Source of the DNA: Peterkaempfera bronchialis
Lineage (GTDB): Bacteria > Actinomycetota > Actinomycetes > Streptomycetales > Streptomycetaceae
Direction of reading: 5' to 3'
Length of the DNA stretch: 64,000 nucleotides
Assembly: GCF_003258605.2 (NCBI RefSeq)
Contig: NZ_CP031264.1
Location: 6,626,232-6,690,231 of the forward strand
Shown: positions 56,150 to 62,722 of the stretch, one piece after another
Numbering within the stretch: the first letter of the stretch is position 1
Layout of the letters: each line of letters opens with the position of its first letter
The notes under the pieces: generated by a model
Database searches by the model: none
Seen by the model: only the letters and a program-made list of their open reading frames with translations
Told to the model about the DNA's origin: nothing
Position numbers and translations under genes: made by a program

Positions 56150-57358
56150 GTGTCTCGCCGCCTGTTCACCTCGGAGTCCGTGACCGAGGGACACCCCGAC
56201 AAGATCGCTGACCAGATCAGCGACACCATCCTCGACGCACTCCTCAAGGACGACCCCACCTCGCGGGTCGCCGTGGAGACGCTGATCACCACCGGCCAGG
56301 TGCATGTCGCCGGCGAGGTGACCACCAAGGCGTACGCGCCGATCGCGACGCTGGTCCGGGACAAGATCCTGGAGATCGGGTACGACTCGTCCAAGAAGGG
56401 GTTCGACGGCGCCTCCTGCGGCGTGTCGGTCTCCATCGGCGCCCAGTCGCCGGACATCGCCCAGGGCGTGGACGCGGCCTATGAGAACCGGGTCGAGGGC
56501 GACGACGACGAGCTGGACCGGCAGGGCGCGGGCGACCAGGGCCTGATGTTCGGCTACGCCTGCGACGACACGCCCGAGCTGATGCCGCTGCCGATCACCC
56601 TGGCGCACCGGCTGGCCCGCCGGCTCTCCGAGGTGCGCAAGAACGGCACCATCCCCTACCTGCGCCCGGACGGCAAGACCCAGGTCACCATCGAGTACGA
56701 CGGCGACCGGCCGGTCCGCCTGGACACCGTCGTGGTCTCCTCGCAGCACGCCTCCGACATCGACCTGGACTCGCTGCTCGCCCCCGACATCCGCGAGTTC
56801 GTGGTGGAGCCGGAGCTGGCGAGGCTGGCCGAGGACGGCATCACCCTCTCCTTCGAGGGCTACCGGCTGCTGGTCAACCCCACCGGACGGTTCGAGATCG
56901 GCGGCCCGATGGGCGACGCCGGACTGACCGGCCGCAAGATCATCATCGACACCTACGGCGGCATGGCCCGCCACGGCGGCGGCGCCTTCTCCGGCAAGGA
57001 CCCGTCCAAGGTCGACCGCTCCGCCGCCTACGCCATGCGCTGGGTCGCCAAGAACATCGTCGCCGCCGGGCTGGCCCGCCGCGCCGAGGTCCAGGTCGCC
57101 TACGCCATCGGCAAGGCCGAGCCGGTCGGCCTCTTCGTGGAGACCTTCGGCACCGAGACCGCCCCGGTCGCCAGGATCCAGGCCGCCGTCACCCAGGTCT
57201 TCGACCTCCGCCCGGCCGCCATCATCCGCGACCTGGACCTGCTGCGCCCGATCTACTCCCAGACCGCCGCGTACGGCCACTTCGGCCGCGACCTGCCGGA
57301 CTTCACCTGGGAGCGCACCGACCGCGCCGAGGAGCTGAAGAAGGCCGTCGAAGCCTGA
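56150..57358 (+). CDS. metK: S-adenosylmethionine synthetase
   Basis: 402 residues. Makes SAM from methionine and ATP. Opens [20 protein letters not shown], has [12 protein letters not shown] and the P-loop-like [22 protein letters not shown] 56150 follows AGGGAG. In streptomycetes SAM supply affects sporulation and antibiotic synthesis. It stands alone with its own promoter, leader hairpin and terminator; the accessory scar begins right after. Confidence 0.97.
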
Positions 57359-57378
57359 CCCACGCACCCCGAACGCCC

Positions 57379-57412
57379 CGGCGGGCCCCGCTCTCAGGAG
57401 CGGGGCCCGCCG
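57379..57412 (+). terminator. Terminator of metK
   Basis: A 15 bp perfect stem (57379-57393 with 57398-57412) and a TCAG tetraloop. Confidence 0.9.
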
Positions 57413-57490
57413 AAGTGTTCTCTTGACCTACTGAAGGTGTTCTGTGTCCATCATCCGCCCGGCAGCATTCCCCGGACGGTGAGTCGAACG

Positions 57491-57706
57491 CTATCGGGTC
57501 GCCCCCAGACGGCGGAGGGCTGCCACGACGATCAGTCCGACGGCGGCCCCGGCGCAGGATTCCAACGCCGTCATCATTGCCGAGTCGCCTTGGCTGACTG
57601 CGAACGCCGCGTACAGGACGACGCCGAAAAGAGCGGCTGAAATGTACTGCCACCTGGGAGGGAGCAGAGAATCGGTCCTCTGTCGCAGCGTTATGAAGAA
57701 ATTCAT
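57491..57706 (-). CDS. Small two-helix membrane protein, candidate immunity protein
   Basis: 71 residues from ATG 57706, with AAGGTG 5 nt upstream (a GTG at 57712 would add two residues). Two hydrophobic segments are seen: YISAALFGVVLYAAFAV and ESCAGAAVGLIVVAAL, joined by a short loop, with a basic end (RRLGATR). The gene starts 7 nt after the stop of an RHS toxin tail on the same strand, and its ribosome binding site overlaps that stop. Position, size and topology suit an immunity protein against a membrane-acting toxin. Codon choice is visibly less G+C-biased than in the neighbours. No family recognised. Confidence 0.55.
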   Translation of the reverse strand: MNFFITLRQRTDSLLPPRWQYISAALFGVVLYAAFAVSQGDSAMMTALESCAGAAVGLIVVAALRRLGATR

Positions 57707-57713
57707 TCGCACC

Positions 57714-58091
57714 TTAGAACCATGTATTCGATCCTCGGAATACTCCGTAGAATCCGCCGCCGACAGCGGCGCCGGGTGCGCAACCGATACCGCCGCTCAT
57801 GGTACCAGCGATCACGTATCCGCCGATAACCCCGATTCCTCCGCCGATGGTACCGCCCCGACCGCCATAGAAAAAGACGCCCTTCGCCCGGCGGGCACCC
57901 CAGTGCCAGAATGAGCGCTTGCCTCGGCAGCGCTTCTGCTATGCCTGCCAGCACTTTCCATCGATATCGGTGTCGTAGTGGTTGAGCTTGGCGGTGGTCT
58001 GGGTCCAGGTGGTGCCGGTGTTGGTCTCGGTGGTGAAGCCGCGGAAGCGCAGGTTGGAGTCGAGGGTCCAGGTCTGGCGCTGGGTGCGGGT
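57714..58091 (-). pseudogene. Remnant of an RHS/YD-repeat polymorphic toxin
   Basis: On the minus strand one frame reads an RHS core fragment, RTQRQTWTLDSNLRFRGF ... TGTTWTQTTAKLNHYD, running straight into DIDGKCWQA, which resembles the end of an RHS core (normally hundreds of residues later). A TAG (57941-57939) interrupts the frame. It then continues for 74 codons as a basic segment (QKRCRGKRSFWHWGARRAKG) and a glycine-zipper hydrophobic tail (IGGGIGVIGGYVIAG, GAAVGGGFYGVF), stopping at TAA 57716-57714. So the gene lacks its 5' part, has an apparent internal deletion and a nonsense codon. Its 5' break abuts the truncated CGNR gene. Confidence 0.65.
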
Positions 58092-58634
58092 TGGCTCTGC
58101 CTGGACTTCATCCGCACCCTGCGCCACCGGGGCACCGACGCCGTCTCGGAGGAGTTGGCCGACCCGGCCGACCTCGCCGCCTGGGTGCGCCAGTGCGTAC
58201 CCTCCGCCGTCGGCAGCGCGGTGCCGTCGGCGGACGCCGCCCGGGTCGGCGAGGCGCGGCGGCTCCGGGAGGCGGTCCACCAGCTGGTCCAGGCAGCTCG
58301 GGGGCCCGGTGGCGCCGGAGCCTGCGGACGAGAGGCCCTGGAGTGCGTCAACCGCGCGGCGGCGCGGCCGGTGCCCACGCCGAGCCTCGATCCGTCGGGG
58401 GGCATCCGCTGGCGCGCGGACGATCCGGTGGACGCGGCCCTCTCGCTGGTCGCCCGCGACGCCCTGGACCTCGCCACCTCGGCGTCCGCGACCCGCGTCC
58501 GGCAGTGCGCCGGGCCGCTCTGCGGCGCGCTCTTCCTGGACGGCTCGCGCCCGGGGACCCGCCGCTGGTGCGCGATGGGCGTCTGCGGCAACGCCGCCAA
58601 GAAGCAGGCCCTCCGCACCCGATCCGCCCGCTGA
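57978..58634 (+). CDS. CGNR zinc-finger (ABATE domain) regulator, 5'-truncated
   Basis: From 58089 the frame reads GWLCLDFIRTLRHRGTDAVSEEL, the start of an ABATE domain, and ends with the CGNR zinc finger (CAGPLCGALFLDGSRPGTRRWC, split as CAGPLCGALF and RRWCAMGVCGN). Proteins of this type are described as putative stress-related transcription regulators. The family N-terminus and a proper start are absent: upstream of 58089 the DNA is the antisense of the RHS remnant, and the only in-frame starts (for example GTG 57978) would add a Gly-rich noise segment. The coding part is intact to the stop, but expression is doubtful. Confidence 0.6.
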   Translation: MVELGGGLGPGGAGVGLGGEAAEAQVGVEGPGLALGAGWLCLDFIRTLRHRGTDAVSEELADPADLAAWVRQCVPSAVGSAVPSADAARVGEARRLREAVHQLVQAARGPGGAGACGREALECVNRAAARPVPTPSLDPSGGIRWRADDPVDAALSLVARDALDLATSASATRVRQCAGPLCGALFLDGSRPGTRRWCAMGVCGNAAKKQALRTRSAR

Positions 58635-58660
58635 CCGGGGCCGCAGGCCGGACCGGTCGG

Positions 58661-58690
58661 AGCAGCTTGGAGCAGCTTGGAGCAGCCTGG
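58661..58690. repeat. 10-bp tandem repeat between the CGNR and MOSC genes
   Basis: AGCAGCTTGG twice, then AGCAGCCTGG, just past the CGNR stop. Confidence 0.8.
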
Positions 58691-58700
58691 TCGGCTCGGA

Positions 58701-59243
58701 TCAGACCCGGTCGAGCGGCCGATGCGGCTCGTCCGGGAGCTCGACCCTGATCGCGTCGCCGGGCCGGACCGTGCCGCCGCTCACCACGACGCTCATGATC
58801 CCGGCCTTGCGTACGACATTGCCGGCCTCGTCGCGGCCGACCACCCGCTTCAGCAGCCCGCTCTGGAAGTGGTCGATCTGGAGGCAGGGGTTGCGCAGCC
58901 CGGTGACCTCCACGACCGCCTCGTCGCCGAGGTGCAGCAGCGTGCCGACGGGCAGGTCGAGCAGCCGGATGCCGCTGGTGGTGATGTTCTCGCCGAGGTC
59001 ACCGGGCAGGACCCTGAACCCCTCCCGGCCGAGCTCGGCGAAGAGCTCCTCATGGATGAGGTGGACCTGGCGCAGGTTCGGCTGCGTGGGGTCCTGCGCG
59101 ACCCGCGAGCGGTGCCTGACCGTCACCCCGGCGTGGACATCCCCCTCCACGCCGAGCCCGGCGATCAGGGTGATGCTGCTCCGGTTCGGCTTGGTGAACG
59201 TGTACTCGCCATTGCTGCTGACCGCCGTCACCGTCCCGGTCAT
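58701..59243 (-). CDS. MOSC domain protein
   Basis: 180 residues, a stand-alone MOSC domain as found in molybdenum-cofactor sulfurases and the YiiM/YuaD group. Visible are GLGVEGDVHAG, RQVHLIHEELF, LPGDLGENITTSG and the conserved Cys in VTGLRNPCLQI, which is thought to carry sulfur or contact the cofactor. The substrate is unknown; detoxification of N-hydroxylated compounds is known for YiiM-like members. The start at 59243 is ATG on the minus strand. It is followed in the opposite direction by CGNR. Confidence 0.88.
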   Translation of the reverse strand: MTGTVTAVSSNGEYTFTKPNRSSITLIAGLGVEGDVHAGVTVRHRSRVAQDPTQPNLRQVHLIHEELFAELGREGFRVLPGDLGENITTSGIRLLDLPVGTLLHLGDEAVVEVTGLRNPCLQIDHFQSGLLKRVVGRDEAGNVVRKAGIMSVVVSGGTVRPGDAIRVELPDEPHRPLDRV

Positions 59244-59291
59244 CCCGGAGCCCCCTTCTCGGTAGCGATGTCCACCCCCGAGCCTACGCGG

Positions 59292-60119
59292 CTACCGCCC
59301 CGCCTCGGGCCAGCCGTGCAGCCGTACCGCCCGGCGGATCAGCGTCAGCATGACCACCGCCCCGGCGAAGACCACCGCGCACACCAGCCCGGCGAACGCC
59401 GCCGCCGGGGCGGTGGCCGGCAGCAGATTGGCCCCGGCGACCAGCAGCACCACCGTGGTGAGACCCCCGGCCACGGCCGCCCACGCCCGTCCGCGCGGAG
59501 CCTGGGCGTGGATGCGGAGCGGACGGGCCGCCCCGGCGGCCAGCAGCACGCCCCCGACCGGCACCGCCACCGCTCCCCACACCCCGCCGAAGTGCTCCGC
59601 CAGCGCCGCCAGCGCGACCACCGCCGCCGAGCAGGGAGCCATCGCCAGCGCCAGCAACCCGGCCTCCGCACCGACCGCAGGCCCCGGGCTGCCCTTGACC
59701 CGGACCAGGGGCAGCCGTATCCGCGAGGCGGCGGTGAAGACCGGTACCGCGCACAGCAGCGCGCCCGCCGCCGCCACCAGTTCGGCCGTCGACCGGTCGG
59801 CCATCCGGTCCCGCAACACGTCCACGGTGAGGAAGAAGACCGCCGAGCCGAGGAACCCCGCCAGGAGCGCAGGCCACACCCGGCTGCGGTGCTGGGCGAA
59901 GACCCACCAGACCAGACACCCGCCGGCCGGCCCCAAGGCCGGAGTCCCCCCGCCGCCGATCAGCCGGTGCACCCCCCACGCCAGCGCGCACAACAGCCAC
60001 GCGAGGAGCAGCATCCCGGCGGCCTCGCCCCACTCCACGGGCCGCACCTCCACGGGCCGCGTCCGCACCGGCGGAGCAGGGGCGTTCGGCTGGGTCGGCT
60101 CAGGATCAGGCGCAGGCAC
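59292..60119 (-). CDS. Multi-pass membrane protein of unknown function
   Basis: 275 residues with about seven hydrophobic helices (for example MLLLAWLLCALAWGV, VWPALLAGFLGSAVFFLTV, GLTTVVLLVAGANLLPA) and a Pro-rich N-terminus. No family recognised. The GTG at 60119 has no Shine-Dalgarno; a GTG near 60040 (GTG GAG TGG), preceded by GGAGG, is an alternative that would drop the Pro-rich segment. It is divergent from priA. Confidence 0.65.
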   Translation of the reverse strand: MPAPDPEPTQPNAPAPPVRTRPVEVRPVEWGEAAGMLLLAWLLCALAWGVHRLIGGGGTPALGPAGGCLVWWVFAQHRSRVWPALLAGFLGSAVFFLTVDVLRDRMADRSTAELVAAAGALLCAVPVFTAASRIRLPLVRVKGSPGPAVGAEAGLLALAMAPCSAAVVALAALAEHFGGVWGAVAVPVGGVLLAAGAARPLRIHAQAPRGRAWAAVAGGLTTVVLLVAGANLLPATAPAAAFAGLVCAVVFAGAVVMLTLIRRAVRLHGWPEAGR

Positions 60120-60210
60120 GGGAGGATCCTAGGGGCACGCGCAGCGAGGCCGCGAAGCGCCCATCCGGCCAGGTCGGCCGTGTCGGTCCCGTCTGGTACG
60201 ACTAAGGGTG

Positions 60211-62348
60211 ATGAGCAGCACCGATCCGCAGCGGCCCGCCGACGCCGCCGCACCCGAGACCCCGGGAGCCGCCCGCGACGAGAGCGCGCCCCCCGAGCAG
60301 CTCGCGCTGCTCCGGGAGACCGTGCGCAAGGCCCGGCCCCGGGCGCGCGGGCCGCAGCCGCTGGCCGACGACCTGCCGGTGGCCCGGGTGCTGGTCGACA
60401 AGGGCCTCGCCCACCTTGACCAGTACTACGACTACGCGGTGCCCGCCAAGATGGCCGAGACCGCCCGGCCCGGGGTGCGGGTGCGGGTGCGGTTCGGCGC
60501 CCGGGTGGTGGAGGGGAAGCGGTCCGGCGGCGGTCTGCTCGACGGGTATGTGGTGGAGCGCCGCGCCGCCTCCGACTACCCCGGCCCGCTGGCCCCGCTC
60601 TCCCTGGTGCTCTCCCCGGAGCCCGTCCTCACCCCGCCGCTGCTGCGGCTCTGCCGGGCGGTCGCCGACCGCTACGCCGGGACCCTCGCCGATGTGCTCA
60701 GCCTCGCCGTGCCGCCCCGCCATGCCCGCGCCGAGGCCGACCCCTCCCCGGAGCCGCTGCCCGCCCCGCCCGCCCCCGATCCCGGCCCCTGGGCCCGCTA
60801 CCCCACGGGCGCGGGCTTCCTGGCGGCCCTGGCGTCCGGGCAGTCCCCGCGCGCGGTGTGGACCGCCCTGCCCGGCCCGCACTGGCCCGAGGAGGTCGCC
60901 CGCGCCGTCGCCGCCACCCTCGCCTCCGGCCGGGGCGCCCTGGTGGTGGTGCCCGACGGCCGCGCCACCGCCCGGGTCGACGCGGCGCTCACCGCGGTCC
61001 TCGGCCCCGGCCGCCACACCGCGCTCACCGCCGAACTGGGCCAGGAGGAGCGCTACCGCCGCTGGCTCGCCGTCAGCCGAGGCTCCGTACAGGCCGTCGC
61101 GGGCACCCGGGCCGCCATGTTCGCCCCCGTGCGCGACCTCGGCCTGCTGGTCGTCTGGGACGACGGCGACGGCAGCCACAGCGACCTGCACGCCCCCCAC
61201 CCGCACGCCCGCGACGTCGCCCTGCTGCGCGCCACCGAGGAGGGCGCCGGCGTACTGATCGGCGGTTTCGCCATGACCGTCGAGGCCGCCCAACTGGTCG
61301 CCACCGGCTGGGCCCGGCCGCTCGCCCCCGACCGCGAGGGCCTACGCCGCACCGCCCCCCTGGTACGGACCGTCGGCGACCGGGACCTCGCCCGCGACGA
61401 GGCCGCCCGCGCCGCCCGGCTGCCGACGCTCGCCTGGCAGACCGTGCGCGACGCGCTCACCCGTGGCCCGGTCCTGGTCCAGGTGCCGCGCCGGGGCTAT
61501 GTGCCGCGCCTGGCCTGCGCCCGCTGCCGGGAGCAGGCCCGCTGCGCGCACTGCGCCGGACCGCTGGAGGCCCGGGGCGGCGACGGGCTGCTGCACTGCG
61601 TCTGGTGCGGCCGTCCGGAGGGCGACTGGCACTGCCCGGAGTGCGGCTCCTTCCGGCTGCGCGCCCAGGTGGTGGGCGCCCGGCGGACCGCCGACGAACT
61701 GGGCCGGGCCTTCCCCAAGGTGCCGGTGCGCACCTCCGGGCGGGACGCGGTGCTGCCCACCGTCCCCGCCGCTCCGGCGCTGGTGGTGGCCACGCCCGGC
61801 GCCGAACCGGTCGCCGAGGGCGGCTATGCCGCCGCGCTGCTGCTGGACGGCTGGGCGCTGCTGAACCGGCCCGACCTGCGGGCGGCGGAGGAGGCGCTGC
61901 GCCGCTGGCTGGGCGCCGCGGCCCTGGTACGGCCGCAGAGCGAGGGCGGCACGGTGGTGGTGGTCGCCGAGCCGACCCTGCGGCCGGTCCAGGCGCTGGT
62001 GCGATGGGACCCGGCCGGGCATGCCGCCACCGAACTGCGGGAGCGGGCGGAGCTGGGCTTCCCGCCGATCTCCCGGATGGCCGCGGTCACCGGCTCGGCG
62101 GCGGCCGTCGCCGACCTGCTGGCCCTCACCCGGCTCCCCGAAGGCGCCGACGTACTCGGCCCGGTGCCCGTACCGGGCCCGCCGGGCCCGGGGCCGGGCG
62201 CCGAGCCGCAGCAACGGGCCCTGGTCCGCGTTCCGTCCGGGCAGGGCGCATCCCTCGCCGCCGCCCTCAAGGCCGCCCAGGCCGTCCGCCTCGCCCGCAA
62301 GCAGGCCGACCCGGTCCGCGTCCGCATTGACCCCCCGACATCGGCTGA
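60211..62348 (+). CDS. priA: Primosomal protein N' PriA (actinobacterial, no visible helicase motifs), frame break at its 3' end
   Basis: Replication restart protein. The N-terminal 3'-DNA-binding domain (VARVLVDKGLAHLDQYYDY), degenerate helicase lobes without a Walker A motif, and a zinc module with four CxxC pairs (CARC, CAHC, CVWC, CPEC) are typical of actinobacterial PriA, which is thought to lack helicase activity. It ends ALKAAQAVRLARKQADPVRV in frame, but then misses the stop: GACATCGGCTGA at 62337-62348 would end the gene if the C-run at 62331-62336 had one more C. As sequenced, the frame stays open for 1.5 kb through unrelated DNA. The start is ATG 60211 or GTG 60208, close to a TACGAC -10 (60197-60202). 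Confidence 0.85.
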
Positions 62349-62722
62349 CCGGCCCCCGGCCGCCCAGGCCGCCTCGCCCGCAAGCGGGTTGGCCCAGCCC
62401 GCGTCCGCATCGACCCCCGCATCGACCCCCCGACATCGGCTGAGCGGCCCCCGGCCCCCGGCCCCCGTCCGCCTCGCCCGCAAGTGGGCCGACCCGATCC
62501 GCATCCGCGTCGACTTCTGCCTCCCCGCCTGGTGCCGGGGCAACGGCCCAGCCCCGGCTGGCCGCCTCGCCCGTAAGCGGCCCAGCCCCGCGTCCGCGTC
62601 GACTTCTGCCCCCGCCCGGTGCCGGGCCAACTGCCCAGCCCAGGCCGTCCGTCTCGCCCGCAAGCAGGCCGACCCGGTCCGCATCCGCATCGCCCCCCGG
62701 CATCGGCTGACCGCCCCGCGCC
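62278..62722. repeat. Degenerate five-copy repeat array built from the priA 3' end
   Basis: Copies begin near 62278, 62365, 62463, 62559 and 62641 (period about 82-98 bp). The shared core is CCGCCTCGCCCGCAAG followed by variants of GGCCGACCCGGTCCGCATCC. The first and last copies are most alike and both end CATCGGCTGACC. The array fills the 400 nt between priA and the convergent HTH gene; no other gene is seen there. Confidence 0.8.

What the first reader, a model, noticed from the sequence alone, without database searches (positions are those of the whole stretch)
57491..58091. Broken RHS toxin with a glycine-zipper tail, followed 7 nt later by a small two-helix membrane protein
Seen: on the minus strand an RHS core fragment, a TAG, then a basic linker and a 45-residue Gly-rich hydrophobic tail; directly behind it, with the ribosome binding site overlapping the stop, a 71-residue protein with two hydrophobic segments. 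Known: RHS toxins carry variable C-terminal toxin domains followed immediately by an immunity gene. Inference: the tail is a membrane-disrupting (pore-like) toxin module and the small protein its immunity partner, kept after the toxin decayed. I do not recognise either module, so the pair may be a poorly described toxin-immunity type.
Basis: partly seen in the sequence, partly recalled or inferred. Interest (0 to 1): 0.72.

Follow-up and report, generated by a model that had tools for sequence, protein, structure and literature searches.

The report
Relic RHS membrane-toxin and immunity cassette
A dead leftover of a bacterial rivalry toxin that probably punched holes in membranes, still followed by the open gene for a small membrane protein that most likely protects against it; a complete version of the pair exists in another Streptomyces, so the idea can be tested.

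Summary
On the minus strand a 149-nt RHS-core fragment, a TAG, a 74-codon glycine-rich tail and, 7 nt after its stop, a 71-codon two-helix membrane protein lie in order. The tail has no usable start codon and the core is cut at both ends, so the toxin half is a relic.

The main support is an intact locus. A pattern scan found a 2075-codon RHS frame with a signal-like N-terminus in Streptomyces prunicolor; it ends in a homologous tail, and a homologous 69-aa membrane protein overlaps its stop. Kitasatospora sp. CB01950 has the tail end and a truncated small protein as an orphan pair behind another RHS gene. The similarities are specific: nine of ten other RHS-linked small membrane proteins do not match. 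Across 86 RHS loci, short tips (≤130 aa) are followed by small membrane ORFs in 11 of 15 cases, longer tips in 4 of 71.

I read it as a displaced, decayed RHS tip–immunity cassette: a glycine-zipper membrane toxin and its two-helix immunity protein, working like Tse5–Tsi5 or CDI ionophores but matching no Pfam or NCBIfam family. Pore activity and protection are inferred, not shown.

The parts
57942..58090 (-). RHS-core fragment; NHYD probably fused to the core-end motif (D)IDGKCW by an internal deletion of about 140 codons; 5' part of the gene lost
   Evidence: about 90% DNA identity over 124 nt to the intact RHS gene at 157 kb of the same genome
57939..57941 (-). in-frame TAG between the core end and the tip
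   Evidence: sequence
57717..57938 (-). 74-codon glycine-zipper tip (P0003): basic aromatic linker, then a GxxxG-rich hydrophobic segment; no start codon except inside the zipper
   Evidence: homologous to the C-terminal tip of the intact S. prunicolor RHS protein (BLASTP 1e-6; shuffle z 10.7); in-frame starts listed
57714..57716 (-). TAA stop of the tip; with the next GG it forms the likely ribosome binding site of the next ORF
   Evidence: sequence
57491..57706 (-). 71-aa two-helix membrane protein (P0002), probable orphan immunity protein
   Evidence: homologous to the ORF overlapping the S. prunicolor RHS stop (BLASTP 1e-5; z 8.9) and to the Kitasatospora ORF (z 14.4); AlphaFold2 hairpin H17-39 and H43-69, mean pLDDT 76

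Best explanation
The segment is a displaced and decayed tip-immunity cassette of a secreted, WapA-like RHS polymorphic toxin. In its intact form (S. prunicolor) the toxin gene is a 2075-codon RHS frame with a signal-like N-terminus. Its variable C-terminal tip is about 100 aa: a basic, aromatic linker followed by a glycine-zipper segment with repeated GxxxG. [quoted passage not shown] The overlapping next gene makes a helical-hairpin protein that sits in the producer's membrane and blocks insertion or assembly of the cognate tip. In the window the core is truncated and internally deleted and a TAG separates it from the tip, so no toxin can be made; the small protein's ORF is open and may act as an orphan immunity protein against neighbours that carry the toxin. 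Shown: gene order, homology, the intact locus, decay of the toxin. Inferred: secretion and delivery, pore formation, protection, expression of the small gene.
For: Intact RHS gene with the homologous tip, and the homologous small ORF overlapping its stop, in S. prunicolor (RHS_repeat and Rhs_assc_core). Orphan copy of the same pair in an array behind a different RHS gene in Kitasatospora. Specific similarity of both parts against local-shuffle controls and against unrelated RHS tips and small membrane proteins. The zipper glycines G32/G36/G40 and G52/G56/G60 of the tail are all conserved in S. prunicolor. Short RHS tips are followed by small membrane ORFs in 11 of 15 loci, longer tips in 4 of 71. 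Helical hairpin model of P0002. Lower G+C of tail and small gene (0.64, 0.625) than of the window (0.727). metK and priA are neighbours in congener G002, so the stretch is an indel. Precedents: Tse5 with two-TM Tsi5, CDI ionophores with a glycine zipper, displaced RHS tips without start signals, protective orphan RHS immunity proteins.
Against: No toxicity, pore or protection data. The tip model is of too low confidence to show a membrane fold, and its hydropathy is moderate (best 19-residue mean 1.42). Only one intact locus was found. The Kitasatospora small protein is truncated after its first helix. A zipper relative in G293 has no such membrane ORF behind it. No promoter-like site was seen, though the scan does not suit actinomycetes.
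Confidence: 0.72

Rival explanations
1. The glycine-zipper tail is a translocation or membrane-entry segment rather than the lethal part; the lethal domain that followed it has been lost, and the small protein counters entry or has another role.
For: In the DNase effector Tde1 a glycine zipper is needed for entry into target cells (PMC10240207). Many longer RHS tips in the family have hydrophobic stretches ahead of other domains (e.g. L111, L112).
Against: In the intact S. prunicolor protein the zipper is the very C-terminus and the next gene overlaps the stop, leaving no room for a further domain. Small membrane partners go with short tips, not with long ones.
Confidence: 0.12
2. Both halves are neutral debris: a decayed RHS tip followed by an ORF that is no longer expressed or selected, without present function.
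For: The toxin is clearly dead; the Kitasatospora copy of the small gene is truncated; no promoter-like site was seen; a 71-codon ORF can stay open by chance in G+C-rich DNA (many such ORFs).
Against: The small ORF is full length against its intact homologue, keeps its ribosome binding site and a coding-like G+C pattern by codon position (0.62/0.52/0.75). This reading does not contradict the ancestry, only the present use.
Confidence: 0.3
3. The small protein is a membrane chaperone, anchor or export partner of the RHS tip rather than an immunity protein.
For: Tight overlap and co-inheritance with the tip would look the same; the membrane location would suit export or anchoring.
Against: The partner differs completely in sequence from tip to tip (nine of ten unrelated to P0002), as expected of cognate immunity and not of a shared export step. 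It is kept without a toxin in the window and in an orphan array in Kitasatospora.
Confidence: 0.08
4. The similarity of tail and small protein to the S. prunicolor and Kitasatospora loci is only shared composition (glycine-rich, hydrophobic).
For: The glycine-rich tail gave weak hits in 91 other family genomes in the single-sequence search.
Against: Local shuffles that keep the hydropathy profile never reach the scores of either protein against S. prunicolor; other Gly-rich tips score z -1.2 to 2.7 and nine of ten other small membrane proteins about 0. Both parts match in the same order in three genomes.
Confidence: 0.04

Closest known systems
Tse5-Tsi5 of Pseudomonas aeruginosa (RHS pore-forming effector and immunity protein; PMC9637101, PMC10684867)
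   Same: RHS protein whose C-terminal tip acts on the cytoplasmic membrane; immunity protein with two predicted transmembrane regions.
   Different: Delivered by a type VI system of a Gram-negative; no sequence match found here. The tip described here is shorter and glycine-zipper-rich, on a protein with a signal-like N-terminus in actinomycetes.
CDI ionophore toxins and their CdiI proteins (PMC11630599)
   Same: Polymorphic membrane-depolarising C-terminal toxins with a GxxxGxxxG zipper and highly variable cognate immunity proteins.
   Different: On CdiA of E. coli; five-helix ionophore domain plus entry domain; the tip here has no room for both and the carrier is RHS.
Orphan rhs-CT/rhsI modules (Salmonella, PMC3967940) and orphan RHS immunity proteins (Serratia, PMC10539506)
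   Same: Displaced tip with some core sequence, no translation start, linked immunity gene.
   Different: In the window no main RHS gene lies beside it and a TAG separates core from tip, so it looks decayed rather than stored.
EsxX with ExiCD (Staphylococcus aureus T7SS, PMC12744356)
   Same: Gram-positive membrane-depolarising toxin with a glycine zipper, polytopic membrane immunity proteins that also occur as orphans.
   Different: LXG protein of a type VII system; two membrane proteins plus a soluble pair; no sequence comparison was made.
W-TIP toxin domain, Imm17 and Imm-CdiI of Zhang et al. 2012 (PMC3482391)
   Same: Predicted pore-forming polymorphic tip with two membrane helices; two-TM immunity proteins.
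   Different: No W-TIP motif in the tip, no WxW in the small protein, and no profile hit.

Membership tests
RHS polymorphic toxin with C-terminal tip | RHS/YD repeats and the RHS-associated core domain ahead of a variable tip | tested here: met
   Met by the intact relative: RHS_repeat 5e-14 and Rhs_assc_core 2.6e-8, tip after the core end. In the window only a core fragment remains.
RHS polymorphic toxin with C-terminal tip | small immunity gene directly behind the tip | tested here: met
   Gene order in the window, S. prunicolor and Kitasatospora; protection itself not tested.
Orphan rhs-CT/rhsI module | tip with partial core sequence, no translation start, linked immunity gene | tested here: met
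   definition from PMC3967940
Orphan rhs-CT/rhsI module | located downstream of a main rhs gene | tested here: not met
   Neighbours are metK and an ABATE/CGNR gene; met for the Kitasatospora copy.
Tse5-Tsi5 (works like) | two-TM immunity protein | tested here: met
   Two hydropathy peaks and a modelled helical hairpin.
Tse5-Tsi5 (membership) | sequence homology of tip or immunity protein | tested here: inconclusive
   No PDB or Pfam match for P0002; no direct pairwise comparison with Tse5 or Tsi5 was made.
Pore-forming or ionophoric toxin | membrane depolarisation by the tip, relieved by the immunity protein | not testable with these tools
   needs an experiment
CDI ionophore | GxxxGxxxG zipper | tested here: met
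   G32/G36/G40 and G52/G56/G60 of P0003, conserved in S. prunicolor.
CDI ionophore | five-helix ionophore domain with separate entry domain on CdiA | tested here: not met
   The carrier is RHS; the tip is about 80-100 aa and not confidently modelled.
W-TIP / Imm17 | W-TIP motif in the toxin; WxW and an Arg between the TM helices of the immunity protein | tested here: not met
   Motifs absent on reading; no profile hit.

The most novel reading that the evidence does not exclude
Streptomycetaceae carry a large, undescribed class of very short (about 60-125 aa), glycine-rich membrane tips on secreted RHS proteins, each with its own unrelated two-helix membrane immunity protein. This pair is one family of that class, and orphan immunity genes such as the window's protect against toxin-bearing neighbours.
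Probability: 0.5. Interest if true: 0.62.

Novelty: new member of a known kind. Interest (0 to 1): 0.45.

Why it matters
Membrane-depolarising polymorphic tips are best known from type VI RHS and CDI proteins of Gram-negative bacteria. Here the same logic appears in mycelial Gram-positives, on RHS proteins with a signal-like N-terminus and with very short tips. An intact natural pair (S. prunicolor) is named, and the family-wide link between short hydrophobic tips and small membrane ORFs gives a simple rule for finding more membrane toxin-immunity pairs.

Tried and rejected
1. Pfam, NCBIfam and PHROGs profiles for tail and small protein: nothing credible (TraT E 0.16, a phage tail family E 0.037).
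2. The search for related loci with P0003 in genome contigs: 378 candidate stretches, none confirmed. It was replaced by a DNA pattern of the tail end with its stop, which worked; five of its seven hits are chance.
3. tblastn of both proteins against plasmids: no match.
4. Single-sequence searches of 395 family genomes gave many weak hits; those inspected lie in unrelated or non-coding-looking frames, except G015 for the small protein and G293 for the zipper.
5. Profile searches in 393 genomes of the genus of G011 (the largest genus, presumably Streptomyces) and 70 of the genus of G015: only the known Kitasatospora copy and the zipper-only G293. In one search only 12 candidates per genome were scored, so tails may have been missed.
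6. AlphaFold2 of the tip: mean pLDDT 48, so no fold search was run.
7. Rfam in 57000-60500: nothing. Sigma-70-type promoter scan: nothing.
8. Considered and rejected: the overlapping Arg-rich 83-aa minus-strand ORF 57703-57954, an out-of-frame reading of the tail.

Full report
What is there. Reading the minus strand, an open frame carries RHS-core sequence from 58090 to 57942, meets a TAG at 57941-57939, continues for 74 codons to a TAA at 57716-57714, and seven bases later the ATG at 57706 opens a 71-codon ORF ending at 57491. The tail begins with a basic, aromatic linker (QKRCRGKRSFWHWGARRAKG), followed by a glycine-rich hydrophobic segment ending in YGVFRGSNTWF. The only in-frame start codons of the tail lie inside the zipper, so a complete tail cannot be translated by itself.

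State of the RHS part. The core fragment is 90% identical over 124 nt to an intact RHS gene at 157 kb of the same 7.09-Mb genome. In that gene NHYD and the core-end motif YDLDGKRCW are 141 codons apart; in the window NHYD runs almost directly into DIDGKCW. The simplest reading is an internal deletion that fused the core to its own end. This is an inference, because an alignment to NHYDAESDNPRW cannot be excluded over so few residues. At 58090 RHS homology stops and the coding region of an ABATE/CGNR regulator begins on the other strand, a second junction. In the congeneric genome G002 metK and priA are neighbours, so the stretch from about 57.4 to 60.2 kb (RHS remnant, ABATE/CGNR, MOSC and a membrane protein) is an indel between the two genomes.

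Relatives. A protein-based scan of species genomes confirmed nothing, but a DNA pattern for GGxYGxFxGxxxW, one T-initial codon and a stop gave seven loci, two of them real. In Streptomyces prunicolor NBRC 13075 (L076) the match is the C-terminus of an RHS frame of 2075 codons with a signal-like N-terminus and RHS_repeat and Rhs_assc_core matches. Overlapping its stop (TAGTG) is a 69-aa ORF that aligns without gaps to P0002 (BLASTP 1e-5; tip against tail 1e-6). In Kitasatospora sp. CB01950 (L069/L073) the tail end and a truncated small protein lie at the end of an array of small genes behind another RHS gene whose own tip is different.

Specificity. Against shuffles that keep local composition, no replicate reached the score of P0002 with either partner, or of the tail with S. 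prunicolor. Nine of ten other RHS-linked small membrane proteins score near zero against P0002 (the tenth, L103, reaches z 3.8), and other Gly-rich tips score z -1.2 to 2.7 against the tail. A relative of the zipper alone sits at the C-terminus of an RHS protein in G293, without such a neighbour. The pair is rare: of 395 family genomes searched with P0002 and 463 with the profile (partly overlapping sets, about 700 genomes in all), only the window genome and G015 have a credible small-protein match.

A rule in the family. From a core-end search of 61 family genomes and 80 further fetched stretches I extracted tips and the next ORF. Of 86 usable loci, tips of at most 130 aa were followed by a small ORF with a hydrophobic segment in 11 of 15, longer tips in 4 of 71 (Fisher p 6e-8; 2.6e-7 without S. 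prunicolor). Loci are not phylogenetically independent, the next ORF was chosen by codon-position G+C, and membrane calls are plain hydropathy windows, so the p-value is indicative only.

Structure. P0002 is modelled as a short N-terminal helix plus a helical hairpin (H17-39, H43-69; mean pLDDT 76 on a two-sequence alignment). Arg residues at both ends and an Asp in the loop suggest both termini in the cytoplasm (inference). The tip is not modelled with confidence.

How it most likely works. By analogy with Tse5-Tsi5 (PMC9637101), CDI ionophores (PMC11630599) and EsxX (PMC12744356), the intact tip is delivered by the RHS carrier, inserts in the target membrane, assembles through GxxxG contacts and collapses the membrane potential; the hairpin protein in the producer's membrane blocks the cognate tip. 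In the window only the hairpin protein can still be made. Orphan immunity proteins do protect in Serratia RHS loci (PMC10539506), and displaced tips without start signals are typical of enterobacterial rhs loci (PMC3967940). The main rivals are that the zipper serves entry, as in Tde1 (PMC10240207), disfavoured because the zipper is the very C-terminus of the intact protein; and that the small ORF is by now neutral debris, which cannot be excluded and is compatible with the same ancestry.

Verdict. The concept (membrane-active tip plus two-TM immunity protein) is known; this sequence family was not found in the libraries searched. New member of a known kind.

Noticed in passing
window 57359-60207: About 2.85 kb between metK and priA (small protein, RHS remnant, ABATE/CGNR, MOSC protein, 275-aa membrane protein) is absent from congener G002, where metK and priA are about 200 nt apart; MOSC homologues lie elsewhere in G001 and G002.
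   Followed up: partly
window 57978-58634: The ABATE/CGNR gene's 5' end runs into antisense RHS sequence: Pfam ABATE starts only at residue 40 of the ORF, so its native start was probably replaced at the junction near 58090.
   Followed up: partly
L070/L083 (own genome, about 156.4-157 kb): The intact RHS gene of the same genome ends in another Gly-rich tip (VGAGVGCGLV...FGYGGGGVIIGG) and has an unrelated 62-66-aa two-helix ORF 165-177 nt behind it, possibly another pair of the same kind.
   Followed up: partly
L069 8800-11263: Behind the Kitasatospora RHS gene lies an array of small genes on one strand, including two paralogous bacterial PH-domain (bPH_6) proteins with hydrophobic segments; it looks like a polyimmunity or orphan-cassette array.
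   Followed up: partly
L079 (G293): An RHS protein with a different core ends in a zipper very like the window's (GGGAGAVGGCVIAGVFTDGIGCPAGAIAGAGYG) but another extreme C-terminus and no small membrane ORF recognised behind it.
   Followed up: partly
L149: Two short hydrophobic RHS tips (59 and 79 aa) lie in tandem, each followed by a small membrane ORF.
   Followed up: no
window about 62250-62720: The end of the priA frame runs into repeated units reading like VRLARKQADPVRIRI...HRLTGPRPPAP; it looks like a tandem repeat extending the frame.
   Followed up: no
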